Positions 5,609 to 57,143 of a DNA stretch of 64,000 bases are shown one piece after another (within the stretch, counting starts at the first letter, position 1; the number at the start of each line of letters is the position of its first letter). The DNA comes from a virus, in IMG/VR virus record IMGVR_UViG_3300042922_000850, positions 102,759 to 166,758 of that record; one strand, written 5' to 3'. The position numbers and the translations under genes were made by a program. A model generated the notes under the pieces. That model worked only from the letters and a program-made list of their open reading frames with translations. It ran no database searches and was not told where the DNA came from.

Positions 5609-5626
5609 TAATATCGTATAAGAAAT

Positions 5627-5660
5627 AAAAGAGGATGAACAATATCCTCTTTTATTTTAT
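5627..5660 (+). terminator. Rho-independent terminator
   Basis: A perfect 10-base stem AAAAGAGGAT / ATCCTCTTTT (5627-5636 and 5644-5653) with loop GAACAAT, followed by ATTTTATTT. It ends the unit containing the YhaM-like gene. The recurring motif CGTATAAGAAA lies just upstream (5614-5624). Confidence 0.8.
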
Positions 5661-21528: not shown

Positions 21529-21564
21529 TAACATAAAATTCTATCGTATAAGTAACAAAACAGG

Positions 21565-25603: not shown

Positions 25604-25669
25604 TTCGAATAAAGCTAATAAGTCCACATACCCAAAATAAACTATATCAATCAGGAGGATAACTCAGCT

Positions 25670-25894
25670 ATGGGGATAGTAAACATTTCAAAAGAAGCTT
25701 TAATTTTAGGGGGAGCCGCAACAGTAGGAATTTTCGGAGGACTTCTTGTTATAAACAGAAAGAAGCTGGCGGAAGAGAAGAAGGACCACGCCCACTGCGA
25801 ATGCGATGATACTGATGAAATTTGTTTTGACGATTTAAACGAAAATATCATTGATAGCAGTTTTGTCGATGACGATGATATTAACATCGGCTAG
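25670..25894 (+). CDS. small membrane protein with acidic tail
   Basis: 74 residues, site AGGAGGATAA. One hydrophobic helix (ALILGGAATVGIFGGLLVI, residues 10-28) is followed by a basic stop-transfer (NRKKLAEEKK) and a long acidic cytoplasmic tail with two Cys (HCECDDTDEICFDD). Probably an inner-membrane protein with a tail that may bind metal or a partner. Function unknown. Confidence 0.7.
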   Translation: MGIVNISKEALILGGAATVGIFGGLLVINRKKLAEEKKDHAHCECDDTDEICFDDLNENIIDSSFVDDDDINIG

Positions 25895-25907
25895 TGGGAG
25901 GCTCGGC

Positions 25908-26219
25908 ATGACATTACAAGAGGCTTATGCATCATGTGATGCGGGAAACTTTGTTTCGCATCTTAATTTTAGTAGCAACGAGAGTATGCACAAATATGAT
26001 GGCGGTTTATATTACGAAGACGGTGCAAATCTGACCACGTCAGATTTTGATCTATCGCAAGAAGAATGGGCACAAGATAACTGGTATATTAAGTTTACAC
26101 AGGAAAAAGTAGATGCTGAAAAACTTCGTAAAATGCATGAGGATAGTAGAGGTTACATGCTTCAATGCGTTTCTTACGAAGATTGTATTATTAAAACTGG
26201 TGAGGAGGAACTAAAATGA
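25908..26219 (+). CDS. hypothetical protein, possibly DUF2829-like
   Basis: 103 residues from ATG 25908 (GTGGGAGGC before it). The start LQEAYASCDAGNFVS, then YDGGLYYEDG and EEWAQDNWYIK, follow the layout of small phage proteins of the DUF2829/Tad2 type (Q-A-L-x6-G-K ... W ... DW). Tad2 members block Thoeris defence by binding its signal molecule. The resemblance is weak and the family call tentative. Its stop overlaps the next start (ATGA). Confidence 0.55.
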   Translation: MTLQEAYASCDAGNFVSHLNFSSNESMHKYDGGLYYEDGANLTTSDFDLSQEEWAQDNWYIKFTQEKVDAEKLRKMHEDSRGYMLQCVSYEDCIIKTGEEELK

Positions 26220-26560
26220 GCGAAACGTGCAGACATATGATTGGGCAGATTATGGAATTAAACAAAGAGATAATTTGTACAAGTGAATTGACGGGAGAGG
26301 CAGTAAAGACATACCCAAAAGGTACTAAGTTCACAGTGTCATCGAACGGGAGTTTCGTATTTCCGGATGGCAAGATAGTAGTCCCTTCAGAAAAGGTTGA
26401 AGTAAAAGGATATGATACAGAAGCTATAGCTCTTCGGATCATGAAATACTTAAAGCACGATACGCCTATTAACGAAATTATCGATGAAGACGATGATTAC
26501 TATAACGAAAAAACTTTTAAAGAAGCAATTGAAGAAGCTTTGATGGACATTCTTCTCTAG
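26216..26560 (+). CDS. hypothetical protein
   Basis: 114 residues, coupled to the upstream gene by a four-base overlap, site GAGGAGGAAC. The N-terminal 65 residues are beta-rich (KFTVSSNGSFVFPDGKIVVP). The C-terminus is helical and acidic (IIDEDDDYYNEKTFKEAIEEAL). No recognised domain. Confidence 0.65.
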   Translation: MSETCRHMIGQIMELNKEIICTSELTGEAVKTYPKGTKFTVSSNGSFVFPDGKIVVPSEKVEVKGYDTEAIALRIMKYLKHDTPINEIIDEDDDYYNEKTFKEAIEEALMDILL

Positions 26561-26608
26561 GCGGCGATAGTTGTCAAAAGCAAGATTTCAAAGGTATAGT
26601 TTAGTTAG

Positions 26609-26631
26609 CTGAATTAAAGATTTAGTGGAGG
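26609..26631 (+). repeat. leader direct repeat, copy 1
   Basis: A 23-base sequence (CTGAATTAAAG, then ATTTAGTGGAGG) containing the ribosome site of the 26638 gene. An identical copy stands at 26828-26850 before the next gene. Confidence 0.75.
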
Positions 26632-26637
26632 ACTCTT

Positions 26638-26820
26638 ATGAAATCACAAGTAGTAAATGGAACCATGTTTCATGTTAAAATCATATACAAAGATGGAGGT
26701 CACAAGTATGCCAATATCTTTTCTGAAAAAGACTATTATCTGGGTATAAGTCTTGGGACAATTGTCGGGTACAAAGAAATGAATTGTATTGAAAGATTTA
26801 TTTTTAGGAACTGTTTATAG
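26638..26820 (+). CDS. small basic hypothetical protein
   Basis: 60 residues after GTGGAGG. Beta-like start (MFHVKIIYKDGGHKYANIF) and a Cys-containing end. Its leader contains the same 23-base repeat as the next gene, so the two may be co-regulated at translation. Confidence 0.6.
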   Translation: MKSQVVNGTMFHVKIIYKDGGHKYANIFSEKDYYLGISLGTIVGYKEMNCIERFIFRNCL

Positions 26821-26827
26821 AGTTGAA

Positions 26828-26850
26828 CTGAATTAAAGATTTAGTGGAGG
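26828..26850 (+). repeat. leader direct repeat, copy 2
   Basis: Second exact copy of the 23-base leader sequence, again including GTGGAGG, eight bases before the ATG at 26858. Confidence 0.75.
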
Positions 26851-26857
26851 TAATAAT

Positions 26858-27124
26858 ATGGCAAAGTTTAGCGCAGAGTATAAAAACCGTGTACCCAAGT
26901 ACATATTAACATTCAGAGGTAAAGAGTTTGATTTTTCAATGAATCAAAAATTAGAATACGGCACAAGCTCAGATAAACCATGCTTCTCAAAACAACTATC
27001 AGATGCGTTTGAAGATTTAAACGAAGATGAGCTTGAAGAAACCGATATCGATCAACTTGATAGCATATTACATGACGAAGAAGAGTTGTTCGAAATACTA
27101 GAGCGGGTGGAAGAACTTGAGTAG
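26858..27124 (+). CDS. acidic hypothetical protein
   Basis: 88 residues. The second half is strongly acidic (FEDLNEDELEETD, then HDEEELFEILERVEELE); the first is basic with YILTFRGKEFDF. Possibly a structural pair of strand and acidic helix that binds a basic partner. Overlaps the next gene by eight bases. Function unknown. Confidence 0.65.
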   Translation: MAKFSAEYKNRVPKYILTFRGKEFDFSMNQKLEYGTSSDKPCFSKQLSDAFEDLNEDELEETDIDQLDSILHDEEELFEILERVEELE

Positions 27125-27476
27125 AAGTATTCGTTTCACTTTAAAAGAATTAATGGAGAGAGAGATCTATAAGCGAGCGAAACATATTAAATATGTGGAT
27201 AATGAAGGGTTGGATTTAAACATGGAGAAACCTATTCCGTCTGCGCCCGTGTTGTACTTCGAAGAATTAAAAGATGGCACGCTACTGGTAAAATTATGGG
27301 TCTGTAACAAAATGCCCGATGGATGGAGATTAAAATTTGGGGCATTAACAGCACCAAATGGTTTTCACTGGATATGTAACGGTAGAAGCAGATTTGATGT
27401 AGCGTACCGTGTAGCTTTATTGAGAGCCTATAATCAAACGTCTGAAACAACGCCGAATTTATGGTATAAGAAATAA
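27117..27476 (+). CDS. hypothetical protein
   Basis: 119 residues from TTG 27117, with GGTGGAAG before it; ATG 27153 is an alternative with a weaker site. Basic N-terminus, then a compact domain with several Trp (LWVCNKMPDGWRLKF, GFHWICNG). The C-terminal codons overlap the recurrent motif GGTATAAGAAATAAA. No recognised family. Confidence 0.6.
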   Translation: MSRSIRFTLKELMEREIYKRAKHIKYVDNEGLDLNMEKPIPSAPVLYFEELKDGTLLVKLWVCNKMPDGWRLKFGALTAPNGFHWICNGRSRFDVAYRVALLRAYNQTSETTPNLWYKK

Positions 27477-27501
27477 AACAAAAGCGAAAGGAGCAACAAT
27501 T

Positions 27502-27687
27502 ATGATCACATCAAATGGACAAAGACTAGCGAAGGCATTAGTAAAGGTAAGTAAAAATGTAGTTATCGTAGCAGGTAGCGCAATAATAACGGGGGTTCTT
27601 ACAAAGAAAACCAGAGACGCAGTAGGCGAGATAGGAGAAGGAGCAAAACACATTTACAATGTAGTTGTAAATATAATTCAAAAATAA
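27502..27687 (+). CDS. small hydrophobic-helix protein, paralogue A
   Basis: 61 residues, site AAAGGAG. A basic N-terminus, a hydrophobic stretch (NVVIVAGSAIITGVL, about 19-33), a basic KKTRDA and a second amphipathic part (HIYNVVVNIIQ). Same layout and recognisable similarity to the gene at 27808 (GSxITGxL, then AxxEIxxGxKxxYNxxVN). Probably membrane-associated. A terminator separates the two. Confidence 0.7.
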   Translation: MITSNGQRLAKALVKVSKNVVIVAGSAIITGVLTKKTRDAVGEIGEGAKHIYNVVVNIIQK

Positions 27688-27720
27688 TGAATTACAATTA
27701 AAATAAAGGGGTTGGGTACC

Positions 27721-27750
27721 GGGCAGGAATTATCCTGCCCTTTATTTTTG
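27721..27750 (+). terminator. Rho-independent terminator
   Basis: Stem GGGCAGGA / TCCTGCCC with loop ATTA, then TTTATTTTTG. It separates the two small paralogues. Confidence 0.8.
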
Positions 27751-27807
27751 TTTTTCATTATAGTCATAAAAAGAATTATAAATAAAAATTAAAAGGAGAA
27801 TATTATT

Positions 27808-28011
27808 ATGCCAAGTTCAAGTAAACAAAAATTAGGAAAAGCTACTGCTCAGGTGGCTAAAAATTTAGCTGTTGTTATCGTTGGCTCAGTAATAACCGGT
27901 ATATTAGCAACTAAGTCTAGGAATGCAATAATGGAAATCGCAGATGGGTGTAAGCAAGTGTATAACATCGGCGTGAATGTGTATTACGAAATTAAGGAGA
28001 ACAGAGAGTAA
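27808..28011 (+). CDS. small hydrophobic-helix protein, paralogue B
   Basis: 67 residues, site AAAAGGAG. Hydrophobic stretch NLAVVIVGSVITGILA (about 18-33), then a basic TKSRNA and GCKQVYNIGVNVYYEI. Clear paralogue of the 27502 protein, so a duplication with a terminator in between. Predicted membrane-associated; role unknown. Confidence 0.7.
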   Translation: MPSSSKQKLGKATAQVAKNLAVVIVGSVITGILATKSRNAIMEIADGCKQVYNIGVNVYYEIKENRE

Positions 28012-28045
28012 ATCTGTTCTAAATATTTTGGGGAGAGGTGACAAT

Positions 28046-28894
28046 TTGGATGCACTATTAATGATGTTTAGTAAGGACTTGAAGCGATTGCCCTTTGATA
28101 ATATTATTCCGTATAATGAGAACGATTTGCTACTAATTGCAAACCCGTATTTGGCATTTCGGTTAACAAATATTGTGGATGATAATAATTCCTATTTCAG
28201 TATAAAGTCTGTTATGACAGAGCACACAGACCCTTTTGCTTGTGCGGATTTTAATCGGACTTGTACGGACTTTGCTGAAATAATGGAGGCGAGAATTGAA
28301 AGGTACTTTGTTACAAAAAAGGTAACATATTTATTCTTTGATGAAGAAGAACAGAATTTTCTAAAGACAATGTTTAGAAACAACACATTAACATCTTCCG
28401 TAATTCTGTATATGCGGACAAATGTGAGAGAGACATTTAAAGAAATCGATTACACGGATCTTGTGCGTAAAGAATACCTGGAAGTATCCAAGTATTTAAG
28501 ACGATTAAGAATTATGACGGTTGTAAGGCCAGATCAGTATTATTCAATGTATGTTTCTAGCAAAAAAGAATCAAAAGAGCGGTTTGAAAATCTGCGAAGG
28601 AACAAAGATAAGGAATTTATGAAGAAAATGTTTGATAGATATCCCAAACTAAAAGACATTAAAACAAAGTCACAATTCCGGACATATTATCTTGGGCTTT
28701 CAAAGAAATATCATCCAGATGCATCCCAAGGTAGCCATGAGATGTTTGCGGAGATCAGTGTTAACTTTGAATTGCTAAAAGAAACTTATTGGTATCGTTC
28801 CCTTACTGATGATGCGGAAGATACAACACAACAACAACAAGCAAGACCAAAAGAGTTTAATATCTTGCTGCAATCAAAAGAAGAGAAGAGGTGA
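28046..28894 (+). CDS. J-domain (DnaJ-like) protein
   Basis: 282 residues from TTG 28046, with GGGAGAGGTGAC before it. The first 190 residues are an unrecognised helical region. At 213-245 there is LGLSKKYHPDASQGSHEMF, then FELLKE, a J-domain core with the diagnostic HPD (223-225). J-domains stimulate Hsp70 ATPase, so this protein probably recruits host DnaK to a phage target such as a replication complex. The C-terminal tail is polar (QQQQ). It overlaps no gene by more than a few bases. Confidence 0.8.
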   Translation: MDALLMMFSKDLKRLPFDNIIPYNENDLLLIANPYLAFRLTNIVDDNNSYFSIKSVMTEHTDPFACADFNRTCTDFAEIMEARIERYFVTKKVTYLFFDEEEQNFLKTMFRNNTLTSSVILYMRTNVRETFKEIDYTDLVRKEYLEVSKYLRRLRIMTVVRPDQYYSMYVSSKKESKERFENLRRNKDKEFMKKMFDRYPKLKDIKTKSQFRTYYLGLSKKYHPDASQGSHEMFAEISVNFELLKETYWYRSLTDDAEDTTQQQQARPKEFNILLQSKEEKR

Positions 28895-28899
28895 CCGCT

Positions 28900-29511
28900 G
28901 TGAATTTAGACATTATTAATGAAATCAATCAGGCGGTTGCTGAGGAAACAAAAGAAGTAAAGTCTGAGGAGCTCCAAGGCAAAGAAAAAATACTGGAGAA
29001 GAATGCTCAGACGGTTCATAAAATTGAGCAGGAGAAAATAACCTTATCTTCAAACCCTACAGATAAAGGTAAGTATGGGCTTAATCAATCGAAGCCTAAA
29101 GAAGAGAGTATCTTTAAGAAATCTTCCGGAGGCTCGCTAGATGATTTCTTTAAAGATAAAGAGACCGATAAGAAATCATCTAGCGGGTATAGCTCTTATG
29201 GGTATTCGGGATACAATCAGCCGAAGAAAGAAGAAACGAAGCAAGAAAAGGCCAGAGAGTTTGCCGGTGCATTCTCTAAGCGGGCAATGGAACATGCCCA
29301 CAAGGAGTGGCAGCACGAAGAAGAGGTTCAGAAGAATTCATGGAACATTTTTGAGCTGCAAGAGAAAGTAGAAGAAGAGCGCAGGAAAACTAGGTCATTA
29401 ACAAAAGAGGCTATAAAGAAATTACAGAACAAAGATATGTTGAAGAAGAGCTTCTTAAAAGGGCTTGCTAGCGCAGGTAAGGGAATTATCGAATATCTGT
29501 ATAACAAATAA
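28900..29511 (+). CDS. low-complexity helical protein
   Basis: 203 residues from GTG 28900, with AAGAGGTGA before it; GTG 28891 overlaps that site. Highly charged (K/E) N-terminal helix, a Ser/Gly/Tyr-rich linker (SSSGYSSYGYSGYNQ, about 100-115), then a long coiled-coil stretch and KGLASAGKGIIEYLYNK at the end. It follows the J-domain gene directly and may be its partner or substrate. No domain recognised. Confidence 0.65.
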   Translation: MNLDIINEINQAVAEETKEVKSEELQGKEKILEKNAQTVHKIEQEKITLSSNPTDKGKYGLNQSKPKEESIFKKSSGGSLDDFFKDKETDKKSSSGYSSYGYSGYNQPKKEETKQEKAREFAGAFSKRAMEHAHKEWQHEEEVQKNSWNIFELQEKVEEERRKTRSLTKEAIKKLQNKDMLKKSFLKGLASAGKGIIEYLYNK

Positions 29512-29535
29512 CTTATTTAATTGGAGGAAAATACA

Positions 29536-29727
29536 ATGCCAAAAGGACTTGAATATTGGAAACAGGAACTTATAGGAGCAGCAAAGAAATTGGTTATAGA
29601 CACGGTGATTTATACTGTGAAGAATATCATCGCTAGTTTTGTAGAAGAACATCTTATCAAACGCCCGATGAAGAAGATTTTCACCATCAATAAAAGATGG
29701 GGATGGGACGACGATTTTGCTTTATAA
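29536..29727 (+). CDS. small amphipathic protein
   Basis: 63 residues from ATG 29536 (TTGGAGGAAA upstream, so TTG 29521 is not the start). A helix with hydrophobic face (LIGAAKKLVIDTVIYTVKNIIASFV) and a basic, Trp-containing tail. It may lie on the membrane. The 3' end overlaps TTATAAGAAATAAA. Confidence 0.65.
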   Translation: MPKGLEYWKQELIGAAKKLVIDTVIYTVKNIIASFVEEHLIKRPMKKIFTINKRWGWDDDFAL

Positions 29728-29739
29728 GAAATAAACTTT

Positions 29740-29822
29740 CTCATATATATCACAAACATATTTTATATATATGAGGGGTCGCCCTCATATATATAAATCG
29801 TTTGACTTTTATATATATGAGG
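29740..29822. promoter_or_regulatory. four-copy operator-like repeat array
   Basis: CTCATATATAT or its complement occurs at 29740-29750 (forward), 29765-29775 (reverse), 29784-29794 (forward) and 29811-29821 (reverse). The middle two form a 14-base perfect stem (TATATATATGAGGG / CCCTCATATATATA) around a four-base loop. The fourth lies exactly between the -35 and -10 boxes of the promoter. This is the arrangement of binding sites for a dimeric regulator. Confidence 0.65.
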
Positions 29823-29831
29823 TGATATAAT
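29802..29831 (+). promoter_or_regulatory. sigma-A type promoter, extended -10
   Basis: TTGACT (29802-29807), 18-base spacer, TATAAT (29826-29831), with TGA before it as extended -10. It would transcribe the 29862 gene and the UvsW-like helicase. Overlapped by an operator-like copy. Confidence 0.75.
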
Positions 29832-29861
29832 ATTCTCAAAAGAACAGTGGAGGGTATTATT

Positions 29862-30047
29862 ATGGAAAATGGAAATGTAACTGAAGTATTAACAAAAGAA
29901 AACGAGCAGTTATTAAAGGATGTAAAGAATGTTCTTCTCTCTGTGTCTGTTGGTGCGGCTGGATATTTTTTAATAGAACTTGGAAAAGGAATAATTAATG
30001 CTGTTGTAAAAAACGGATTAAATGTTCCTGAGTTACCCAAAAAATAA
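29862..30047 (+). CDS. small single-helix membrane protein
   Basis: 61 residues from ATG 29862 (GTGGAGGG before it). Helical, charged N-terminus, then NVLLSVSVGAAGYFLIELG (about 23-41) as one membrane or amphipathic helix and a short tail. First gene after a promoter with an operator array. Resembles the small proteins at 27502 and 27808 in size and layout, but not clearly in sequence. Confidence 0.65.
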   Translation: MENGNVTEVLTKENEQLLKDVKNVLLSVSVGAAGYFLIELGKGIINAVVKNGLNVPELPKK

Positions 30048-30059
30048 GGGGGCAATGAA

Positions 30060-31952
30060 TTGATTATAGTTGGTTTTGATTTCAAAAAGAACATGATCGT
30101 CATGGTTACACAAACACAAGAAGATTACGATGTACTACGTGCACAACGTGAACTCAGTAATATTGGCTGTTGCGAAATGCAGAAGTCGGTATTCGAGGTA
30201 CCGGTAAAAAGTGTCTATTCTCTCAATACTATTCTGGGCGCAATAAAAGACAGAATTACTGTTGATAATAGCTTTAATATCTGGAAACAGAAGCAAAAAG
30301 TCGTCGCACCGGTTTTAATTCGGTGCGGCGTAATTTATAGTCGGGTTTATCCAGGGCAACTCCAATTACCGATAAAAGAAATTGAAGAAGCAACAAGGTT
30401 TTTCCTCAAAGCGGCTGTGAATATGAAAAAGTACAAAGAGGGGAAATGGGACGGATACGTTAATTTATACGATAGAAGAGAAAGAAAATTCCCGACCGGG
30501 TTGTTACCAAAAATACAGGAAGTACTTGATAAAAAGGAGATTCCGTATAATATAGAGATCGTTTATGAAGAGGCGCCAAAACCTGAGTTTAATTGGAGAG
30601 TGGAAGATGGCCTTACACCTGACCCCGATCAATACGATGCTATCGATGCAGGTATTAAAGGCAGGAGAGGCATTATTAAAGCTCCGACTGGATTTGGTAA
30701 AACGGCAATCCTGGCAAAGAGATTGACTGCTAATTTCAGTGTGCCAACTTTATTTGTTGCGAATAAAAAGACATTGCTTGATGATGCTGCCGAAGAGTTT
30801 AGGGATGGTATCAAGGGGCTGAAGAAGACTGATGTTATTCAGATTAAAGATGGTTGGTTTGGGAGTATTAAAATCGACGGTAACACAAAGGCGGAGGACA
30901 TTAAGCCGTTAACCGCTCCGATTATCGTTGCAACGATACAATCGTTGCATGCAAGATTTATTGACCCTAGAACAAAACCATATTTACTTCATTGGTTACA
31001 TAATGTCTGTAAGTTTGTTATGGTTGATGAAACACAGGCTGTCGGCACTCCGATATGGGATGAAGTACTTTCAGAATGCTATGCTCCGTATAGAATATTC
31101 TTATCTGCGACACCTAGAAGAACTGATGGAGCTACTATAAAAATAGAGGCTTATTCTGGATGTTGGTTATATTCCACTACTGCGGCAGAACAGATAGAAA
31201 AGGGTCGCTTATGTGAATTGGATATCCTCTATCAAACTTACGACCACCATCTATACAATGATGACGACGCTGACCTTGTGTACGCAGATATGTATCGCAT
31301 GTGTATTGTGGAAAATGATGAGCGCAACAAAGAGTGTGTTGTTAAGCCTACGCTAGAAATGCTCGCTGAAGGCCGCCACGTCCTCGTACTCATTCAATCT
31401 ATAGACCATGGCACAATTCTTCAAAGATTGTTTTACGAGGCTGGATTAGATGCAGAAGACGTTCGTTTTATATGGGGAGAAACTCCGGATAAAATTAGAA
31501 CAGCAGCAATTAAAGAATTTCGTAAGGGTGAATTTAAAGTTATGATTGGCAGTACTATCTTTGACGCGGGTGTAAATATCCCTGTTATTTCTGGGGTGGT
31601 CCTTGCCGGTGCAGGTAATTCTGATATCACACTAATTCAGCGTATTGGTAGGGGTGCGAGAAATTCTGATTATGAAGAAATTCTTGGATACCTGCCAGAG
31701 TTTATGAAAAAGAACGACGGGAAAAAGATTACAAAGGTATACGACATTATTGACATGAATAGTAAGTTCTTTCACAAACAGAGTAAGAACCGGTATTACA
31801 ACGCGCGTGAGGAATTTGGCGCAGACCGTGTGCACGTCGCGGGTGGAGACAACTCGGCTCTTCGGAAGACACCTAAACGAACTGTGGAAGTGCGGAAAGC
31901 AGTCGATCAATTTTCTGCCCAACTTGATATGTTGGACCAATTTGCAAGATAA
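30060..31952 (+). CDS. UvsW-like SF2 helicase
   Basis: 630 residues from TTG 30060 (AAGGGGG before it; the nearby ATG stops at once). Walker A APTGFGKT (208-215), motif II DETQ (323-326), SATP motif III, and motif VI QRIGRGAR in the C-lobe. The N-terminal 190 residues form a separate domain, as in T4 UvsW. Such helicases remodel replication and recombination intermediates. It probably works with the polymerase and Mre11/Rad50-like proteins. Confidence 0.88.
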   Translation: MIIVGFDFKKNMIVMVTQTQEDYDVLRAQRELSNIGCCEMQKSVFEVPVKSVYSLNTILGAIKDRITVDNSFNIWKQKQKVVAPVLIRCGVIYSRVYPGQLQLPIKEIEEATRFFLKAAVNMKKYKEGKWDGYVNLYDRRERKFPTGLLPKIQEVLDKKEIPYNIEIVYEEAPKPEFNWRVEDGLTPDPDQYDAIDAGIKGRRGIIKAPTGFGKTAILAKRLTANFSVPTLFVANKKTLLDDAAEEFRDGIKGLKKTDVIQIKDGWFGSIKIDGNTKAEDIKPLTAPIIVATIQSLHARFIDPRTKPYLLHWLHNVCKFVMVDETQAVGTPIWDEVLSECYAPYRIFLSATPRRTDGATIKIEAYSGCWLYSTTAAEQIEKGRLCELDILYQTYDHHLYNDDDADLVYADMYRMCIVENDERNKECVVKPTLEMLAEGRHVLVLIQSIDHGTILQRLFYEAGLDAEDVRFIWGETPDKIRTAAIKEFRKGEFKVMIGSTIFDAGVNIPVISGVVLAGAGNSDITLIQRIGRGARNSDYEEILGYLPEFMKKNDGKKITKVYDIIDMNSKFFHKQSKNRYYNAREEFGADRVHVAGGDNSALRKTPKRTVEVRKAVDQFSAQLDMLDQFAR

Positions 31953-31977
31953 ACTAATTTAGAAGGTGGCGGTTGAA

Positions 31978-32160
31978 ATGAATAGGAACAGACCCATTGT
32001 ATCAAACGAAGAGTTACAGGATAGCTATGACTTGCTTAAAAGACAATTCGAGTATCTGCATGAGAGGTTAGTCTATTTAGAAAGGCGCAGGTGGTGGCAG
32101 TTCTGGAAACCAAAGACAGCATATGAGTACAGAAAAGAAGACGGTTATTATGGAAAATAA
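31978..32160 (+). CDS. small coiled-coil, Trp-rich protein
   Basis: 60 residues from ATG 31978, AAGGTGG before it. A short coiled coil (LQDSYDLLKRQFEYLHERLVYLE) is followed by RRRWWQFWKPK, a basic, Trp-rich motif that could contact membrane or nucleic acid. Overlaps the next gene. Confidence 0.65.
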   Translation: MNRNRPIVSNEELQDSYDLLKRQFEYLHERLVYLERRRWWQFWKPKTAYEYRKEDGYYGK

Positions 32161-48004: not shown

Positions 48005-49759
48005 TTATATTTGTGAAATATTAACCTTGTTTAATACTGGGTAGGATATTTCCGGTATTGCTAAACTTGTTGAGGATCGTGTTGTTGTCATCGGGTCACT
48101 GGCATTTGCCGGTATATAAAAACTATCTAATGGGAGTGCGATGTATTCTATATAGTCTTTAATATCGTCATCTGCAGACAACCATGTAGCGATGTCAGAT
48201 TCGTCAATACTTTCGCCCATTCCCTTGGATGCAAAGAAAGCAACGAGAGAAGATTGAATCTTTGCGAGCTTAATTTTATCCAAGGTGTATCCCGCCTTGG
48301 CCTTTATTTTCAACGCAATGTTTATATAGGCTATAGTTGCTTCTCTTGCAAGAATATCCGCTGTAACTAATCGATACTCTTCTTTATCTAAAACAGCTCC
48401 TATGCTTTTGAGTGTAAAATTAACTACGTATTTTACAGTAATAACAGACCCGTTTGGCCGATCATCAAAGTTAATTAGTTTGATTTGGCAGACTTCTTGA
48501 GTAGTTCCAACAACACCTGTTTTAATTAATTGATAATGGGTAGCCGGATCTGCAATAGCTACTCCTGCACTATCATCTAGGGATATAATTTCTTTAACAG
48601 GGATACCCAGTTCTGCGATTGTATCCCCAACAATAAAACTATCAACTTGATTTTGAGTTACCCCGTTTGCATCGGTATAATCGTAGGCGATATATATTTT
48701 GCTATCTGACCCCGGAGTAAAACTTTGATTTCCTGTGTTGTTTAGGATTACAGCCATCTTTTGCTGGCCATTAAGAGTGTACGCTGTTTTTGATAATATT
48801 ACTGGTGTTTTAGTCGAATCTGTATCGTTGATTGCTGACACACTCGCAGAAATTATTGATGCGTAACTCTGGCCAAGTAAAAAGAAATTGGTTAACAAAG
48901 GGATTTCTGCGGTTTCTGTGGTGTAAGTATACCCTTTAACATAGATATCAACCATGCCACCTATGTGCTTGTCGACATACAATCCCGTTATTTGGTTATA
49001 CACCTGAATAATATCTCTTGTCATAAATTTATTTTTATATCCAGCGATGTAAGCATCTTCCGTTTCTTCGAAATTTTCCAGAATAAATGCCTTGTATCCT
49101 GGCTCAGTGCCTAGTTGCCTTGATATATAGAAATCTCCGATATACTTTGCATATTCGGCATTCGTTTGCTTGTCGGTTCCATTATTAACTTCAGCTTCAT
49201 TTGTAACATTCGCCAGATTTGTGTTAAACAATACTGTGCTGGCTACAATCGTATTTACCCCAACGTTATAACCAGATCCGATCTCCGTAGCTTCTACTGA
49301 GACCGGAAGATCATAATTTGAAGTGGACGAATTATAAAAAGGCAACAGCTCTTCGTACGCAAAAGTTGTACGTGTCACGGTTTGAAATTGTAAGCCCTCA
49401 TCTGTTTTGAATGTGATCCCGGCAGGTATAATAATAGTTTCTCCTTCTAAAACGTTTGCAAAGGAAAGGGTCAACGATGTCGTTGCTTTGACTCCTTGCT
49501 TTCTTTTTATGAAGTAGTTACCTTCGCCAATTCTGTCGAGTTCTTCTTCCGTCATATATTCTGCGTTTTCTAAATTCTGCATCATTTCCGCTGTGTTGAA
49601 TTTTTCAACAAATGGGATAAAAAGTTCAATTACTGGTTTTAAAAATACATCGTCAAACGAAGAATCCTCTGTTATATCGAGATTGGGATATTTCTGTTGT
49701 ATCCGGCTTATTGCATATGCTCTTACTAAACCGCTAATATCTGTTACGTTTACCGCCAT
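48005..49759 (-). CDS. BaseplateJ-like wedge protein
   Basis: 584 residues. Typical BaseplateJ features: EYMTEEELDRIGEGNYFIKR, AGITFKTDEGLQFQT, VEATEIGSGYNVGVNTI and GTDKQTNAEYAKYIGDFYI, with a C-terminal alpha/beta part (AYINIALKIKAKAGYTLDK). These proteins form the wedges of contractile-tail baseplates (P2 gpJ, Mu gp47, XkdT). This fixes the phage as myovirus-type. Confidence 0.92.
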   Translation of the reverse strand: MAVNVTDISGLVRAYAISRIQQKYPNLDITEDSSFDDVFLKPVIELFIPFVEKFNTAEMMQNLENAEYMTEEELDRIGEGNYFIKRKQGVKATTSLTLSFANVLEGETIIIPAGITFKTDEGLQFQTVTRTTFAYEELLPFYNSSTSNYDLPVSVEATEIGSGYNVGVNTIVASTVLFNTNLANVTNEAEVNNGTDKQTNAEYAKYIGDFYISRQLGTEPGYKAFILENFEETEDAYIAGYKNKFMTRDIIQVYNQITGLYVDKHIGGMVDIYVKGYTYTTETAEIPLLTNFFLLGQSYASIISASVSAINDTDSTKTPVILSKTAYTLNGQQKMAVILNNTGNQSFTPGSDSKIYIAYDYTDANGVTQNQVDSFIVGDTIAELGIPVKEIISLDDSAGVAIADPATHYQLIKTGVVGTTQEVCQIKLINFDDRPNGSVITVKYVVNFTLKSIGAVLDKEEYRLVTADILAREATIAYINIALKIKAKAGYTLDKIKLAKIQSSLVAFFASKGMGESIDESDIATWLSADDDIKDYIEYIALPLDSFYIPANASDPMTTTRSSTSLAIPEISYPVLNKVNISQI

Positions 49760-49782
49760 TATCGGTCACGCTCCTATTCTAT

Positions 49783-50529
49783 CTAGATTCCTATACCTAC
49801 TTCACTCTCTAAGCCACTTCTACTGCGAAGAGAAACTTCCGCATAAATACTTCCTGTGCCTTCGTCATATTCGATAGAGTTGATGATTATGCTTTCTAAT
49901 ATTTCGTCATCCGTTAGTTGATTTCCATCTAGTATGGATGACATTTGAAGTTCTTTGTAATAATTCGCAGCGACATAGAAAATTGACGCAACCTCGGAAC
50001 AGGTTTGATTTATGTCGTATACTGCTTTGCCCGCATAATCAGAAATCTTAGTGCCATAAGAACTACCTTCAACCTGATAAGTAAAGATCATTTTTATAAA
50101 ATCTTGCACTATCTTATTTGATCCAGTTATTGTCGTTATGTTCGTTTCCGATTGAGGCATTAGATCTACATACCATCCATTCCCAAGACACCGGGGACAA
50201 TCGTCCGATTCATATTCTGCAATATCCGGCTGAATGTAGTAGCACTCCACACAATAAGTTGTTCCCGGTACCGGTTTATTCGTTCCTGTCCACCGAATAT
50301 ATTTTGAATTAATAACATTATAGTCTGCGTCCTTATAATAAAAATGATAATTCAGGGCATCTTCATCGATGATAGTGTAAACGCTATAGATTTGTTGTAG
50401 CGTTGCCCCTGACAGGATCTCGTCATCGCTTGAAGTTGTATTCCTTGTAATCTCTAAAACACTCATGTTCTTTTTATAAGTTTCTATGATATGGTCGCAA
50501 ACATGAACAATTTGTGGTGCTAGTGACAA
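49783..50529 (-). CDS. gp25-like baseplate protein with zinc motif
   Basis: 248 residues from TTG 50529 (AAAGGGGG before it). The first half contains CVECY and CPRCLG, about 20 residues apart, probably a zinc site. The second half (YGTKISDYAGKAVYDINQT, then IIINSIEYDEGTGSIYAEV) resembles gp25/W-type wedge proteins. Placed before the J gene as expected. Confidence 0.65.
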   Translation of the reverse strand: MSLAPQIVHVCDHIIETYKKNMSVLEITRNTTSSDDEILSGATLQQIYSVYTIIDEDALNYHFYYKDADYNVINSKYIRWTGTNKPVPGTTYCVECYYIQPDIAEYESDDCPRCLGNGWYVDLMPQSETNITTITGSNKIVQDFIKMIFTYQVEGSSYGTKISDYAGKAVYDINQTCSEVASIFYVAANYYKELQMSSILDGNQLTDDEILESIIINSIEYDEGTGSIYAEVSLRSRSGLESEVGIGI

Positions 50530-50534
50530 TGGGT

Positions 50535-51281
50535 TTACCCCCTTTCAACTAATAGTTGATGCATCTCATTTTCAATATCTTTCGACTGGTTACTTAATAA
50601 ATCTAAGAATTGTGCTTCGTTACAGTCACAATATTCTCTCCATGTTAATAAAACAATAGCCATTACATCCATTAAAAAATCAGTAGCTTGTAGCATACTT
50701 TTTAGCTTCATCGCTTCATTTATCATATGTTGCAATGTAAATTCATATTTATCAATGAATGTAATACCGGATGATTTTGTAAGTTCTGCCACGTGGCTAT
50801 GATTTTTAGTGACACCGGAAAAAACTTCTGTGAAGCTTGAGTTAATATGCTCCTCATAATTATATAGTGAGATTTCTTGGACCAATTCTTTTGATTTTTG
50901 TCCGCTTGTTTTAAAATTCTCCCCATATTTACTTGAGAGTATTAATTTAAGTTCTTGCATCTTCTCATTGCTTTCTCCAAAAGTACATTGAGCATTTGTA
51001 AAAATATCATCATTGATGATACTGCTTGCTTGACCGCCTCTTTGGGATAGCATATAAACAAAGGTGTTTAGTCCCACACTGGACGATAGGTGTAGTGCCG
51101 TTTCCATTTCGTCTGTTATGCGCGACAGATTAAAAAGTGTTTCCTTACACACACTATCGAGAAAATCTGCCATATTTTCAGCGTCAGCTATATCAATTAA
51201 ATATAACATTGCAACTGCATGTGAAACGCATTTTTTTGTGTAGCTTTTTCCCTGACTTTTTATGTCCTTAATAGACCCCAT
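50535..51281 (-). CDS. hypothetical helical protein in baseplate region
   Basis: 248 residues, site GGGTGGTG. Almost all helical, with several Cys. No known domain. It stands between the sigma factor and baseplate genes, so it may be co-transcribed with the sigma factor and could be its partner, or a structural chaperone. Function unknown. Confidence 0.65.
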   Translation of the reverse strand: MGSIKDIKSQGKSYTKKCVSHAVAMLYLIDIADAENMADFLDSVCKETLFNLSRITDEMETALHLSSSVGLNTFVYMLSQRGGQASSIINDDIFTNAQCTFGESNEKMQELKLILSSKYGENFKTSGQKSKELVQEISLYNYEEHINSSFTEVFSGVTKNHSHVAELTKSSGITFIDKYEFTLQHMINEAMKLKSMLQATDFLMDVMAIVLLTWREYCDCNEAQFLDLLSNQSKDIENEMHQLLVERG

Positions 51282-51296
51282 TTACTGCACCACCCA

Positions 51297-52187
51297 TCAC
51301 ATAAGATTTGCATCTTTCCGCATTTGATTAAATTTATCGATAACTTTTCCTGCCTCGTAATAAGTTATTCCGTTGTCGATAGAAGCACTATATAAACTAG
51401 CCGCTTTTTTTCCTTTAAATTCGCCTAGGCCATAGTAGCTACGAATAAATCTCCTCTCTTGCTTTGGTAATTTATTAATGATCTCTTCTAACTGTTGGTT
51501 TCGGAGTCCTATCTCATATGCCTCTTCCGGAGTTTCGTCATTTACATTTGTAATATCTTGCCATGTGATGAAGTCAGCGCCACTAGTATTATCTGTTCCG
51601 CCAACCTGGACATTTCCACTGAGCTCTTTTCGATCTAATACATCTATTCGCTTAATTTTCTCAGGAGTTAAAGACTTTCCTGTTCCTAACTGTGTCTTTA
51701 CAAAATTATCGATCTCATCAATAGTGGGCTGTCTACCATACTCTTTTACAAGGAAGTTCCTTGCTGTTGCTACAACCTCAGAGTGCATTGATAACTCTTC
51801 GGACTTCCTTGCCACAAAGTCTCTATTGTTATACTTGATTTTTCTTAAGACATTTGGCAATGTATCGAAGATATAAGTGCTCGGCTGAACCGGTTTTGTA
51901 AGATCAAAGTTCTTCGTGATCAATTCTTTAAAGGCTCTATTTGATTCCTGTAAAGCAGTATTATAGTCCATGACTGAAGTAAGTCCAGATTTACTGATAG
52001 AAGAGTTGATTATGTTACGGTATTTCATTTGAAGTTCTTTGAACGCCATAAAGTCGTTGTTCTGCTGCACTTTACGGATTAATTCTCGCTCTTGGATTGC
52101 TTCTGGCTTCATTCCGTTTTCCATGTTACCGAAATCACTTTTCTTTCTGGCTGCATACTTTTGTAAAATTTCTTCTGCAAAGAGCAT
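51297..52187 (-). CDS. sigma-70-like transcription factor
   Basis: 296 residues, site GAGGTG. Region 2-like part (about 48-130): AFKELQMKYRNIINS, then FDLTKPVQPSTYIFDTLPNV and a basic NNRDFVARK. Residues 140-175 recall region 3. Region 4-like part: EEIINKLPKQERRFIRSYYG (about 233-252) and a helix-turn-helix to the end. This fits a phage late sigma factor, although region 2 is diverged. It lies inside the late block but has its own candidate promoter. It could direct host RNA polymerase to late promoters. Confidence 0.75.
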   Translation of the reverse strand: MLFAEEILQKYAARKKSDFGNMENGMKPEAIQERELIRKVQQNNDFMAFKELQMKYRNIINSSISKSGLTSVMDYNTALQESNRAFKELITKNFDLTKPVQPSTYIFDTLPNVLRKIKYNNRDFVARKSEELSMHSEVVATARNFLVKEYGRQPTIDEIDNFVKTQLGTGKSLTPEKIKRIDVLDRKELSGNVQVGGTDNTSGADFITWQDITNVNDETPEEAYEIGLRNQQLEEIINKLPKQERRFIRSYYGLGEFKGKKAASLYSASIDNGITYYEAGKVIDKFNQMRKDANLM

Positions 52188-52236
52188 AATTACACCTCAC
52201 TCCATAATTTATTTTAAAGTTCATTCATTGCTATTT

Positions 52237-52242
52237 ATTATA
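52237..52242 (-). promoter_or_regulatory. candidate promoter of sigma factor gene
   Basis: On the - strand TACTG-TATAAT-AAATAG, in the 75-base gap before the sigma gene. TATAATAAA is the same sequence as in the early-block promoters. No -35 box is seen. A T-rich stretch lies before it. Confidence 0.5.
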
Positions 52243-52262: not shown

Positions 52263-53516
52263 CTACTGCTTTGCCATAATCTGTTTTACCATTTCTTCCA
52301 GCTTCTTAGGAGAACTACTTAACTCAGCATAAAATTTATCGTCATTTGTCATGGTTATCTCAAATGACGAACCGTTACAGGTAATAGTCTTTACAACGCC
52401 GTATTTCCGCTTCAGAGAGATCTTTACAGTATATCTATCCATATATGCCACCTCGCAATTTACAGCCTTTAAGCAAGACCTAGAGGTATCAGCTTTCATC
52501 AATGAAACTACAGGGTAGTCGTCTAAGTTATGTTTTAAAATTATTTCTTCTGACTTCTCCCAAAAATCTGTGATGCCGGATTCGGAAACGGAAAATGAAG
52601 AGGTTACGTCCCCACTCTCGTTAAAAGTTCGAACCCGGTAAATAATAGCTATTTGGTCAGAAGCATAAACAATGTTGCTTGAAGTGAGCTGTTCTAATTC
52701 GGACTGATCGATAACTTCCTTGTTTACGGCGCTTCCCTCTTCCACAATTATGCAAAGCTTTCTCTGATACCGGTAGCTTTCATGAACGCTTTTTTTAAAA
52801 AGAGCTATATTATCTTCTGAGAAATCTTCTTTTAGATTCTGAATACCTACGAGATAATCAAGTATCTTGTTGGTTGCATTCTCGTTTCTTTGGATTATTG
52901 TTGATTGTGTCTTTTTTGAAATGCTTTTCCCGTTGTACTTGGGGGTGGTGAGTTTCTGGCTGTATATCCTTTTTATTTTTATTAACCGTGAGGTTTGATC
53001 ATCCATTAAAATGGTTCCGGAGAATTCCTCGGTGTTTTTATCGTCATAATACTTCCCATTAGAATAAGATTGATTTAAGCCATCTTCTCCATATATCTCT
53101 GTAGAGCATAATCTTGATAAAAATATATGGTTCCCCAGAACATCCTGTTTATAACTGGAGTTTTTTACATATCGCTCCGCTTCGCCCGGTAGAATGTTCC
53201 GCACAATATAATTCTCAGACAGAGATAGTCCACCATAGACAAATCTGTGCCCGTCTGAAGATGATATAAACAGTGACATAGAGTTTTCTTCTGGCATAGT
53301 GATATTCCCTTGCTCTTCACTAAAACTGTCAAAAATCAGAGGAAGAGATTCCATGATGGTTGAAGTGTATGGAATATAAATATCTACCCGGAGATTATTA
53401 TATATTTTTTGAATTATGCACGGATATATCGCGACATTGCTTTTAGCACCTGACCCTGCATATTTTTGAATATTGTTATGAACTAATGACGATGGATTAA
53501 AATATGGATTCATCAT
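52263..53516 (-). CDS. hypothetical baseplate/hub protein
   Basis: About 417 residues from ATG 53516, 11 bases after GAGGAGGG (GTG 53528 is too near that site). N-terminal residues 25-90 look like an OB-type beta domain (CIIQKIYNNLRVDIYIPYTS), like spike or hub proteins. The centre is helical and charged. It follows the peptidoglycan-binding protein gene. No catalytic motif. Confidence 0.6.
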   Translation of the reverse strand: MMNPYFNPSSLVHNNIQKYAGSGAKSNVAIYPCIIQKIYNNLRVDIYIPYTSTIMESLPLIFDSFSEEQGNITMPEENSMSLFISSSDGHRFVYGGLSLSENYIVRNILPGEAERYVKNSSYKQDVLGNHIFLSRLCSTEIYGEDGLNQSYSNGKYYDDKNTEEFSGTILMDDQTSRLIKIKRIYSQKLTTPKYNGKSISKKTQSTIIQRNENATNKILDYLVGIQNLKEDFSEDNIALFKKSVHESYRYQRKLCIIVEEGSAVNKEVIDQSELEQLTSSNIVYASDQIAIIYRVRTFNESGDVTSSFSVSESGITDFWEKSEEIILKHNLDDYPVVSLMKADTSRSCLKAVNCEVAYMDRYTVKISLKRKYGVVKTITCNGSSFEITMTNDDKFYAELSSSPKKLEEMVKQIMAKQ

Positions 53517-54473: not shown

Positions 54474-57143
54474 TTATGACAATAATTCTGCTCTTGTTTT
54501 AGGGCCCACAATTCCATCGGCCTGAAGTTTCCGAACTTTCTGGAAATTAGTTACCGCAATTTCTGTCTTAGAATCAAATTTTCCTGTTGCTGATCCGGTA
54601 TAAAAACCTAGTTGGGTTAAAAGGCTCTGAACCTCTTTAACATATTTGCCTGTATTCCCTTTCCGCAAGATGGAAGTACATTCACTTAAGATAGAGTATT
54701 TTGCTAGTTTCTTTTGAGATAAAACAGCTTTGGTTTTTGGCCCAACTTTTCCATCCGGGGCAAGTCCATTTGCTTTCTGAAATCTAATAACTGCTGCCCT
54801 TGTTTCTAAGCCAAACTTTCCATCTGCCCCACTATCTCCGACGTCATACCCTAAATTTTTTAGTAATTGCTGAAGCTCAGACACATCATTTCCGCTACTC
54901 CCGCGCTGCAATGTTCCTGACCATTTATTAGGTTCTATTTTGGTGTCTGACGTATCCGATGTTTTAGTTGCTGTTTTTGTAACAGCCTTTTTCTTAACCA
55001 CCTTTTTACCATATAAATCTTGATAGTATTTTGAGGATGCAGAATTAATTAGTCCGGTGACCTCAGTTGTATCAACACCCATATGAAACTTTAATACTTT
55101 CGTTTCAAAATCAGTATAGTTAGACGCTTTCTTGCCAACGATTGGACCGAAGTTTCCATCAGTCACTTTATATCCATCGTGCATTTGGTTTACGAAGAGG
55201 TTCCCAGATTCCCCCGGTTTTAATGTTCCTATCTCAGACTTACCATCAATAAAGTCAGAGAGTGTTCGACCCATCGTTAACCCAAGATTCGTATACACTC
55301 CACCACTAGCTGAGCCTTGAAAAGAAATAGAAGACAGATAGTAAATTCTATTGATCCCCAGAGGATCCACCCATATATTAAATCCTACACGAAGCCAAGG
55401 CATCGCAATGGTCTGTAGTGTTGCAATATTCACAGTGGAATTTAAATATGACAGCATAAACTTTGCATAGTTTTTAAGCATATCATACATTGATTGCCGA
55501 TTTGTTGTTGTCGTAGAAGCAGTCGAAAATTTAATCATTGGCTGATCCACATTAAATATAGCTGGACCGAATTTTTTTTCATACTCCGTTGGCACCAACA
55601 AAGAGTCATCGCCTATTGAAATTTGATAGTTACCGAGCGATTTAGGGCTACTTGTTTCTGTTAAGTAATAAATGGGGTCGATATATCCTTTGCCACCATC
55701 TCTTACTCCGACATGTAAATGAGGACCGGTTGAATTACCAGTGTTTCCAGAATACCCCAAGAGAGCACCTTCTTCTACTGTCTGCCCAGCGGTAACTGCC
55801 CAGTTGGAAAGATGTGCATAAATTACAGTATATCCTGCGTAAGGGCCCTCAATAATTTCTATTCCAACATACCTACCAAATCCTTCATCACCTTGGTCCC
55901 CTCTCGTAACCGTACCCTTGGCTCCAATGTGATAAACCTTTGTGCCTGTGCTCATCGCCCAATCAATACCTTTGTGGATATCATTAGCGCCACGAAGCAT
56001 TCTTGGTCCGTATCCAGAGGATACGGTGTATCGGTCTAACCATGTTCCGGTATTTGCACCGGTTAAATCGCTTGGCGTCGAATATCCTACTCCTCCTCCT
56101 GCAGAGCCGGAAGCGGAAGTTGAAAAGGTTCCGTCTGTACGATAAACTGCGGTCGGAGTAATATACGACTTTGTAGATTCGCTCATATTCTCTTCATACC
56201 ATTCTAACCCGCCGGTTGCGATTACTCTGGAGTATTCGGCATCCCAATTAGTCGACTCCGTGAAATTTATAATTAGAGCTGGGTCAATAACATTGCTCTT
56301 TAAAATTGGTTCTGACCAAAATGGCGCTTTAATTCTAATCTGCCCATCGCGGTCTTGAAAGAACTCCAAAAGAACAGATTTAATTAAGTCATTCATCATC
56401 GTATAGATTGAGTTCATCATTGTAGCAGACGCGGTTACTATAAAATCTAATGCGCTTTGATCCTTGGTGTACTTAGGGTCGATGTCTGCCATATGCACAA
56501 CTCTGCCGACCGGATTATCCCATGCCGCAGCTTCCGATTGAGCGTAGAGCATATTCGCTGACATGGTGCGGTCAACAACTTCTTTCCACATCTCTTCGAT
56601 ATTTTTGCCTCTAAAATGAATGTCTCTCCACTGAGTAACAAAAGGTATTTCCTCTAAATTAATTCCCTGTGCCTTCCAGCGCATTCTGTCAGGAAAATTT
56701 AATCTACTCTCTCCTGGAATGGCGAGCGGAACTATCGTTTTATTAAACCATGTTAAGTAATCGCTAGCAGAAAAAGTGATATGCTTTTCGCCACCACTTT
56801 TTGACAGTGTTTTTGACTTGATATTCCCGTCAAAAACACTGCAGTATTTTTCAGTAAACATATTCTTTACAAAAATTCTTAGGTTGGTCATATTTTCAAG
56901 ACCATCACCAACCTCGCTAGTGTCTTGGATTGTTTGGCTCCCAACCTTTATATTCTTATTTGTGCTGTGCAAGCGGTATAAGTCTGGAAGATATATCATT
57001 TCTACAGAGGCAGATCCAATTCCACCATCCACTGCACCCTGAGTAGACCAATTGGTTACGAATTGGTCTACTCTAACGTTGTCAAAGAAAATTGCATATC
57101 CGGATGTGCCGGTTAAAGTTTTGTCGTAAATTTTCCCAGTCAT
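54474..57143 (-). CDS. tail hub/lysin with M23 peptidase and PG-binding domains
   Basis: 889 residues, site AGAGGGAGGG. N-terminal 330 residues resemble a hub protein (late control D-like). An M23 endopeptidase follows: H390-x3-D394 in HKGID and H475-L-H477 in GPHLHVG, the zinc ligands. Two PG_binding_1 repeats are at the C-terminus (VSELQQLLKNLGYDVG; VKEVQSLLTQLGFYTG). It probably opens peptidoglycan at the tail tip for DNA entry. Length suits such Tal proteins. Confidence 0.9.
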   Translation of the reverse strand: MTGKIYDKTLTGTSGYAIFFDNVRVDQFVTNWSTQGAVDGGIGSASVEMIYLPDLYRLHSTNKNIKVGSQTIQDTSEVGDGLENMTNLRIFVKNMFTEKYCSVFDGNIKSKTLSKSGGEKHITFSASDYLTWFNKTIVPLAIPGESRLNFPDRMRWKAQGINLEEIPFVTQWRDIHFRGKNIEEMWKEVVDRTMSANMLYAQSEAAAWDNPVGRVVHMADIDPKYTKDQSALDFIVTASATMMNSIYTMMNDLIKSVLLEFFQDRDGQIRIKAPFWSEPILKSNVIDPALIINFTESTNWDAEYSRVIATGGLEWYEENMSESTKSYITPTAVYRTDGTFSTSASGSAGGGVGYSTPSDLTGANTGTWLDRYTVSSGYGPRMLRGANDIHKGIDWAMSTGTKVYHIGAKGTVTRGDQGDEGFGRYVGIEIIEGPYAGYTVIYAHLSNWAVTAGQTVEEGALLGYSGNTGNSTGPHLHVGVRDGGKGYIDPIYYLTETSSPKSLGNYQISIGDDSLLVPTEYEKKFGPAIFNVDQPMIKFSTASTTTTNRQSMYDMLKNYAKFMLSYLNSTVNIATLQTIAMPWLRVGFNIWVDPLGINRIYYLSSISFQGSASGGVYTNLGLTMGRTLSDFIDGKSEIGTLKPGESGNLFVNQMHDGYKVTDGNFGPIVGKKASNYTDFETKVLKFHMGVDTTEVTGLINSASSKYYQDLYGKKVVKKKAVTKTATKTSDTSDTKIEPNKWSGTLQRGSSGNDVSELQQLLKNLGYDVGDSGADGKFGLETRAAVIRFQKANGLAPDGKVGPKTKAVLSQKKLAKYSILSECTSILRKGNTGKYVKEVQSLLTQLGFYTGSATGKFDSKTEIAVTNFQKVRKLQADGIVGPKTRAELLS

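What the first reader, a model, noticed from the sequence alone, without database searches (positions are those of the whole stretch)
51297..52242. Sigma-70-like factor inside the baseplate block with its own promoter
A diverged sigma factor is placed amid structural genes but preceded by TATAATAAA, the same box as the early promoters. It could be made earlier than its neighbours and then turn on the late block.
Basis: partly seen in the sequence, partly recalled or inferred. Interest (0 to 1): 0.58.

Follow-up and report, generated by a model that had tools for sequence, protein, structure and literature searches.

The report
Sigma factor paired with phage polymerase
A tailed phage that encodes its own cell-like RNA polymerase keeps a promoter-recognising sigma factor among the genes for its tail baseplate, probably so that the factor is built into the particle and helps switch on the phage's first genes in the next cell.

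Summary
The gene is real: window 51297-52187 (-), 296 aa. It is a divergent but true sigma-70 relative: a family profile matches SigA at 3.5e-22 across domains 2-3-4, and the model (pLDDT 85.9) matches sigma chains of solved holoenzymes. TATAATAAA is present upstream, but it is not the early box. The early promoter is GTATAAGnnAnAAAA: 38 copies against 0.12 expected, all on +, none before any of 36 minus-strand leaders. TATAAT without a good -35 marks late leaders, so this gene looks late, not early.

The record also encodes a fused beta-beta' RNA polymerase of 2301 aa. Relatives of this sigma sit upstream of the baseplate wedge genes in 39 of 53 loci. Of 50 such records tested, 35 encode an RNA polymerase, including 19 of 19 at least 150 kb long. 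In the distant relative Salmonella phage Arash, published virion proteomics reports the sigma (467 spectra) together with beta and beta'.

Best reading: it is the specificity subunit of the phage's own polymerase, made late with the baseplate, carried in the particle and used first in the next infection. Partner, packaging here and promoter are inferred.

The parts
51297..52187 (-). sigma-70-like protein, 296 aa; model shows sigma2 (about 28-122), sigma3 (130-185), flexible linker (188-217), sigma4 (220-292)
52234..52242 (-). TATAATAAA box, 55 nt before the ATG; late-type -10-like element without a recognisable -35
50535..51281 (-). 248-aa protein X of unknown function, first gene after the sigma
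   Evidence: no match over a curated cut-off; a gene of varying length lies in this place in relatives
49783..50529 (-). protein Y, same place as Tonenili gp208, which is annotated as a baseplate protein
   Evidence: iterative HMM matches Tonenili gp208, Bacillus phage G gp187, Arash gp12, D181 gp13
48005..49759 (-). baseplate J / wedge protein
   Evidence: Pfam Baseplate_J 9.8e-13, phrog_6 1.3e-32
52263..53516 (-). 417-aa gene upstream of the sigma, in the same block
54474..57143 (-). 889-aa tail hub-like protein with M23 peptidase and peptidoglycan-binding repeats
5616..5630 (+). early promoter motif GTATAAGnnAnAAAA
15931..15945 (+). early promoter motif
21546..21560 (+). early promoter motif
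27464..27478 (+). early promoter motif

Best explanation
The protein is a genuine, divergent sigma-70 factor that serves as the promoter-specificity subunit of the phage's own fused beta-beta' RNA polymerase. It is expressed late as part of the baseplate operon, is built into the tail/baseplate or otherwise carried in the virion with the polymerase, and after injection directs the polymerase to the repeated early promoters (T-rich stretch, GTATAAG, AATAAAA). One early gene is a second, canonical sporulation-type sigma that could then open the late TATAAT promoters, closing the cycle. Shown: sigma family, place in the late block, conserved place beside the wedge genes, co-occurrence with a phage RNA polymerase, the two promoter classes. 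Shown only for a distant relative, by others: virion presence (Arash). Inferred: the partner, packaging in this phage, and which sigma reads which promoter.
For: Sigma identity: profile of 35 members against PDB SigA 3.5e-22 over positions 22-238 of 244; model pLDDT 85.9; the listed top PDB matches are mainly sigma chains, probability 1.00. Own polymerase: 2301-aa protein at record 25094-31999, Rpb2_6 1.2e-63, Rpb1_2 2.4e-33, Rpb1_5 2.4e-30, catalytic NADFDGD, near the portal gene. Synteny: sigma-X-Y-baseplate J in this phage, Arash, D181, and IMG/VR records behind L063, L116, L117/L118 (near-duplicates) and L127; 39 of 53 further loci have Y and/or baseplate J downstream on the same strand. 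Co-occurrence both ways: among 34 IMG/VR records chosen by polymerase, sigma in 12, including 9 of 9 of at least 150 kb; among 50 records chosen by sigma, polymerase in 35, including 19 of 19 of at least 150 kb. Control: six related phages with neither polymerase nor a baseplate sigma (G, LR745208, Tonenili, Myrna, E3, Phrappuccino). Virion: Arash Gp10 100% coverage, 24 unique peptides, 467 spectra; beta 3516 and beta' 1210 spectra. Early promoter: 38 copies against 0.12, all +, also in relatives G004 (11) and G001 (8), one strand only in each. One sigma relative is the C-terminal part of an 834-aa ORF in the tail block.
Against: No virion proteome exists for this phage, and the Arash list holds 116 proteins, including replication enzymes, so carry-over is possible; its authors say so. 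Seven named phages with RNA polymerase genes lack this sigma by profile (0 of 7). Of the 12 stretches fetched around sigma matches in polymerase-bearing records, 5 (L120-L124) did not show it next to the wedge genes, and 14 of 53 loci lack Y or baseplate J within about 4 kb. The Trp-Trp pair of region 2.3 that helps open the -10 box in SigA is absent, and Pfam region 4 matches only 1 of 35 members. The early motif is confined to close relatives, essentially absent from distant polymerase-bearing records, Arash and D181. The clamp-helix motif of the polymerase did not separate phages with from phages without sigma.
Confidence: 0.58

Rival explanations
1. It is the late sigma factor: made with the first late transcripts, it directs the phage (or host) polymerase to TATAAT late promoters and reinforces its own operon. 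Its presence in Arash virions is carry-over.
For: It lies in the late block behind a late-type TATAAT box. Most phage sigmas with known function act on late or middle genes (recalled; SPO1, T4). Arash virions contain many non-structural proteins.
Against: Its fixed place beside the baseplate wedge genes across distant phages and its high share of Arash spectra suggest a virion protein. The second, early-promoter sigma is the better candidate to open late genes.
Confidence: 0.2
2. The sigma fold has been taken over as a structural or docking part of the tail, for example anchoring the polymerase in the baseplate, with no promoter reading left.
For: Baseplate synteny, virion presence in Arash, loss of the region 2.3 Trp pair and weak region 4, one ORF with the sigma as a C-terminal part.
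Against: All three sigma domains are kept across the family and the gene co-occurs with a polymerase, while phage G and Tonenili assemble the same wedge genes without it.
Confidence: 0.12
3. One reading: made early from an early promoter, it turns on the late block, using host RNA polymerase.
For: A TATAAT box precedes it, and a separate transcript is possible in the 75-nt gap.
Against: The early motif is absent here and from all 36 minus-strand leaders; the box is the late type; the gene is operon-embedded in most relatives; the phage has its own polymerase.
Confidence: 0.08

Closest known systems
Salmonella phage Arash Gp10 with Gp206/Gp216 (PMC10585845; passages read)
   Same: Sigma two genes upstream of the baseplate J-like gene; phage-encoded beta and beta'; all three proteins reported in virions; authors suggest early transcription
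   Different: 22% identical to our protein; RNA polymerase in two proteins, not one; no copy of our early motif; the word baseplate does not occur in the paper's text, and the wider family is not discussed in the passages read
Virion RNA polymerases of phiKZ and AR9 (PMC7598289 and PMC7824862; passages read)
   Same: Cell-like multisubunit polymerase carried in the virion for early genes
   Different: Subunits split into several proteins; no sigma homologue in that group; AR9 gp226 has no sequence similarity to sigma
mReC Caudovirales (PMC7481178; start of abstract and passages read)
   Same: Metagenomic tailed phages with deep-branching beta and beta'; our record may belong here
   Different: The word sigma does not occur in the main text searched; membership by phylogeny not tested here
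Phage sigma factors acting on host polymerase (SPO1 gp28/gp34, T4 gp55; recalled)
   Same: Phage-encoded factors that redirect transcription
   Different: Those phages have no RNA polymerase of their own, and these factors are not known as baseplate-operon proteins (recalled)
P23-45 tape-measure-fused virion polymerase (PMC10770324; passages read)
   Same: Transcription enzyme built into the tail to read first genes during DNA entry
   Different: Highly divergent single-chain polymerase in the tape measure; no sigma partner named in the passages read

Membership tests
sigma-70 family | sigma2-sigma3-sigma4 order by sequence | tested here: met
   Profile A9 to SigA 3.5e-22 over 22-238 of 244; single sequence phrog_351 8.2e-8, SigA 2.2e-7
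sigma-70 family | Curated Pfam region models over cut-off | tested here: not met
   Window protein: only Sigma70_r3, 15.8 bits, cut-off 25.3; family at E<=0.01: r3 31 of 35, r4 1 of 35, r2 0. A sensitivity limit rather than a defining residue; see the profile and fold rows
sigma-70 family | Sigma fold in a predicted structure | tested here: met
   pLDDT 85.9, pTM 0.48; Foldseek top matches sigma chains, prob 1.00, best E 3e-6, whole-chain TM only about 0.27-0.37
sigma-70 family | Region 2.3 aromatic (Trp-Trp) melting residues | tested here: not met
   STY is kept in the window protein, Trp-Trp absent; the role of the pair is recalled
sigma-70 family | Binds RNA polymerase and reads promoters | not testable with these tools
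   needs biochemistry
virion RNA polymerase system (phiKZ/AR9 kind) | Phage-encoded beta/beta' homologues | tested here: met
   Fused 2301-aa protein; NADFDGD
virion RNA polymerase system (phiKZ/AR9 kind) | Subunits split into several proteins and no sigma homologue | tested here: not met
   One fused chain; two sigma homologues in the record
virion RNA polymerase system (phiKZ/AR9 kind) | Enzyme present in virions | not testable with these tools
   Only published data for Arash
SPO1/T4-type sigma cascade on host polymerase | No phage RNA polymerase | tested here: not met
mReC Caudovirales | Polymerase in the mReC branch of the tree | not tested
   No tree was built

The most novel reading that the evidence does not exclude
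A widespread lineage of tailed phages packages a complete, bacterial-style holoenzyme (fused or nearly fused beta-beta' plus a dedicated sigma) in the tail. The sigma is a baseplate-operon product that docks the polymerase at the delivery end and reads phage-specific early promoters as DNA enters. A second, early-made sigma relays to late genes, so two sigmas alternate between generations.
Probability: 0.35. Interest if true: 0.86.

Novelty: new variant of a known kind. Interest (0 to 1): 0.72.

Why it matters
Characterised virion polymerases of the phiKZ/AR9 kind work without sigma (PMC7598289, PMC7824862, passages read), and how phages with more bacterial-like polymerases find promoters is open. 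A sigma that travels with its polymerase would be a viral counterpart of a bacterial holoenzyme. It would explain why a transcription factor gene is kept among tail genes, and it gives promoter sequences to test directly.

Tried and rejected
Single-protein scans of IMG/VR with the sigma or the baseplate J protein found no relatives. The distant relatives came only after phage G, Arash and D181 were linked through sheath, portal-like and wedge proteins. GenBank 'phage' hits H1-H3 are unannotated contigs; H2, the one opened, could be bacterial host DNA, which I did not settle, and the hits were not used. Some polymerase hits also look bacterial and were dropped: Staphylococcus, Listeria, Enterococcus, and Salmonella/Acinetobacter genome pieces. 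The genome-contig scan with the polymerase (80 loci kept) returned mostly Bacteroidales and other cellular rpoB/rpoC; seven served only as the bacterial rows. The idea that TATAATAAA is the early promoter was rejected. The first structure job with 2 sequences was poor (pLDDT 59.3) and was replaced. The clamp-helix motif as a marker of sigma use did not discriminate. Bacillus thuringiensis phage 0305phi8-36 was considered; its polymerase is of another family (passages). Literature searches for a virion or packaged sigma (open-licence PMC only) returned, in the listings, no paper on this sigma family; the hits are mostly reovirus sigma proteins and none is about phage sigma factors by title. The Arash mention was found through the phage name.

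Full report
WHAT IS THERE. The window is bases 102759-166758 of a 166,758-base virus record. On the minus strand, 51297-52187 encodes 296 aa with an ATG and a good Shine-Dalgarno sequence. The order in transcription direction is M23 hub (54474-57143), 302-aa peptidoglycan-binding protein, 417-aa protein, the sigma, X (50535-51281), Y (49783-50529), baseplate J (48005-49759), 487-aa protein, collar-like protein. TATAATAAA is at 52234-52242 on the minus strand, 55 nt before the ATG. The 9-mer alone is not enriched: 5 in the window against 2.7 expected.

IS IT A SIGMA FACTOR. As a single sequence it reaches phrog_351 at 8.2e-8 and a SigA chain at 2.2e-7 over residues 56-258, and Pfam region 3 only at 0.015. 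A profile of 35 relatives (A9) matches SigA at 3.5e-22 across almost its whole length. The structure model from that alignment has mean pLDDT 85.9, with only the linker 188-217 below 50 as a segment. The PDB matches listed by Foldseek are mostly sigma chains of initiation complexes; whole-chain TM is low (about 0.27-0.37), which I take to reflect different placing of separate domains. Departures from the norm: the Trp-Trp of region 2.3 is missing, region 4 is barely visible to Pfam (1 of 35 members), and Sigma70_r2 matched none.

THE PHAGE HAS ITS OWN RNA POLYMERASE. Outside the window, at record 25094-31999 (L003:5094-11999, minus), one 2301-aa chain holds beta and beta' domains: Rpb2_6 1.2e-63, Rpb1_2 2.4e-33, Rpb1_5 2.4e-30, with NADFDGD. 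A portal-like gene lies just upstream of it on the same strand (L003:12188-14158). A second, canonical sigma lies at record 49545-50150 (+): region 2 43.5 bits, region 4 45.7 bits, phrog_351 5.1e-38. The early motif lies 137 nt upstream of that gene.

PROMOTERS. With home-made gene calls, the pattern GTATAAGnnAnAAAA occurs 38 times in the record, all on +, against a mean of 0.12 (maximum 2) in 60 dinucleotide shuffles; 37 of 38 have a called + start within 400 nt and 27 of 38 within 81 nt. A T-rich element stands before it, and a weak TTTTAA about 17 nt upstream. It is in 29 of 64 plus-strand leaders and 0 of 36 minus-strand leaders. TATAAT is in 7 of 13 late-block leaders (mean 2.2, maximum 7 of 300 shuffles), in 11 of 23 other minus leaders (mean 3.1, maximum 8) and in 10 of 64 plus leaders (mean 7.5, maximum 14). 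In the late block the best -35 has 4 of 6 matches; before the sigma gene 3 of 6. So the sigma gene has a late-type leader. 'Early' and 'late' are my labels from gene content and strand; no transcript data exist. In the relative L063 a TATAAT box behind a terminator-like stem also precedes the sigma (read by eye), but in most relatives the gene is tightly packed: upstream gap 30 nt or less in 31 of 42 loci, downstream gap 30 nt or less in 38 of 42. A private promoter is therefore not a family trait.

RELATIVES AND SYNTENY. Sheath, portal-like and wedge proteins link the phage to Bacillus phage G, the Bxz1-like mycobacteriophages, Rhodococcus E3, Salmonella Arash and Vibrio D181. Sigma, X, Y, baseplate J in this order, with two genes between sigma and baseplate J, is seen directly in this phage, Arash, D181 and L063. 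One search places sigma, Y and baseplate J alike, with room for one gene between sigma and Y, in L116, L117, L118 (L117 and L118 near-duplicates) and L127. It is looser in L125 and L119, not seen next to Y or baseplate J in L120-L124, and L126 holds a second sigma without them. Tonenili and phage G have Y and baseplate J without the sigma; phage G has phrog_351 matches elsewhere. A scan with the distant branch gave 53 loci; 39 of 53 have Y and/or baseplate J downstream on the same strand inside the fetched stretch. In L222 the sigma is the end of an 834-aa ORF; I read a Nudix-like box in it by eye, not by a search.

CO-OCCURRENCE. Chosen by polymerase: 12 of 41 records have the sigma by profile, made up of 12 of 34 IMG/VR records (9 of 9 of at least 150 kb, one of them weak at 3.4e-6; 3 of 25 shorter) and 0 of 7 named phages. 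One of the twelve is the record of L063, whose sigma was in the profile. Three of the seven named phages are longer than 150 kb (Carin-5, 1.031.O, RHph_TM30), so the rule fails outside this lineage; 1.031.O has another sigma-like gene not beside annotated tail genes. Chosen by sigma: 35 of 50 records have Pfam Rpb2_6, including 19 of 19 of at least 150 kb and 16 of 31 shorter ones, which are more likely to be fragments. Fifteen of the 19 were not in the polymerase-selected set. Related phages with neither: G, LR745208, Tonenili, Myrna, E3 and Phrappuccino lack Rpb2_6, and none has a phrog_351 match at its baseplate J where that was located (none was located in E3).

VIRION EVIDENCE. The Arash paper (PMC10585845; passages read) lists Gp10 (sigma) with 100% coverage, 24 unique peptides and 467 spectra. 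Gp206 (beta) has 3516 spectra and Gp216 (beta') 1210. Its baseplate neighbours Gp11-Gp14 have 156, 253, 517 and 474. The authors offer early transcription or carry-over. This is the only direct virion evidence, from a relative 22% identical in sigma.

MECHANISM. The simplest account is a two-sigma relay: injected polymerase plus baseplate sigma read GTATAAG early promoters; an early product, the canonical sigma, opens TATAAT late promoters; late genes include the baseplate sigma, and probably the polymerase, which are packaged. The weakest links are which sigma reads which promoter and whether this phage packages either protein. The confinement of the exact early motif to close relatives (38, 11, 8 and 1 copies in G000, G004, G001, G006; 0 in the close relatives G002, G003 and G005; 0-1 elsewhere) fits a co-evolving phage-specific holoenzyme but does not prove it, and the zeros in G002, G003 and G005 show that even close relatives can lack the exact motif.

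NOVELTY. Reviews of virion polymerases describe systems without sigma (PMC7598289, PMC7824862; passages read). The mReC paper does not contain the word sigma in the text searched. The Arash paper notes a virion sigma in one phage. The conserved baseplate placement, the two-way association with the polymerase and the early promoter were not found in my searches (open-licence PMC only). I rate it a new variant of a known kind.

Noticed in passing
L004:9545-10150 (+), record 49545-50150: Second, canonical sigma of sporulation type (my reading of the family) behind an early motif; candidate late-gene switch.
   Followed up: partly
L003:5094-11999 (-), record 25094-31999: Single-chain beta-beta' RNA polymerase of 2301 aa near the portal gene, with 43-51% identical fused relatives in six IMG/VR loci.
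   Followed up: yes
whole record, e.g. L006:5149-18577: 38 copies of a phage-wide early promoter motif on one strand only.
   Followed up: yes
L222:2066-4570: Sigma homologue forms the C-terminus of an 834-aa ORF with a Nudix-like stretch (by eye), in a tail block.
   Followed up: partly
L126:7112-7924 (G033): A second, more canonical sigma in another polymerase-bearing record, so two sigmas may be common in this group.
   Followed up: no
L004:13913-15682 (-): SNF2-type helicase (Pfam 3e-23); PMC7824862 reports such helicases travelling with phage RNA polymerases.
   Followed up: no
window 9186-12743 (+): Phage-encoded DNA polymerase III alpha with PHP domain, 1185 aa.
   Followed up: no
L006:952-4461 (-): 1169-aa protein with no match in Pfam (E<=0.1) or PHROGs (E<=0.01).
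   Followed up: no
GenBank records behind H92-H97, H102: Several records labelled phage give strong bacterial-like rpoB/rpoC matches; probably host contamination.
   Followed up: no
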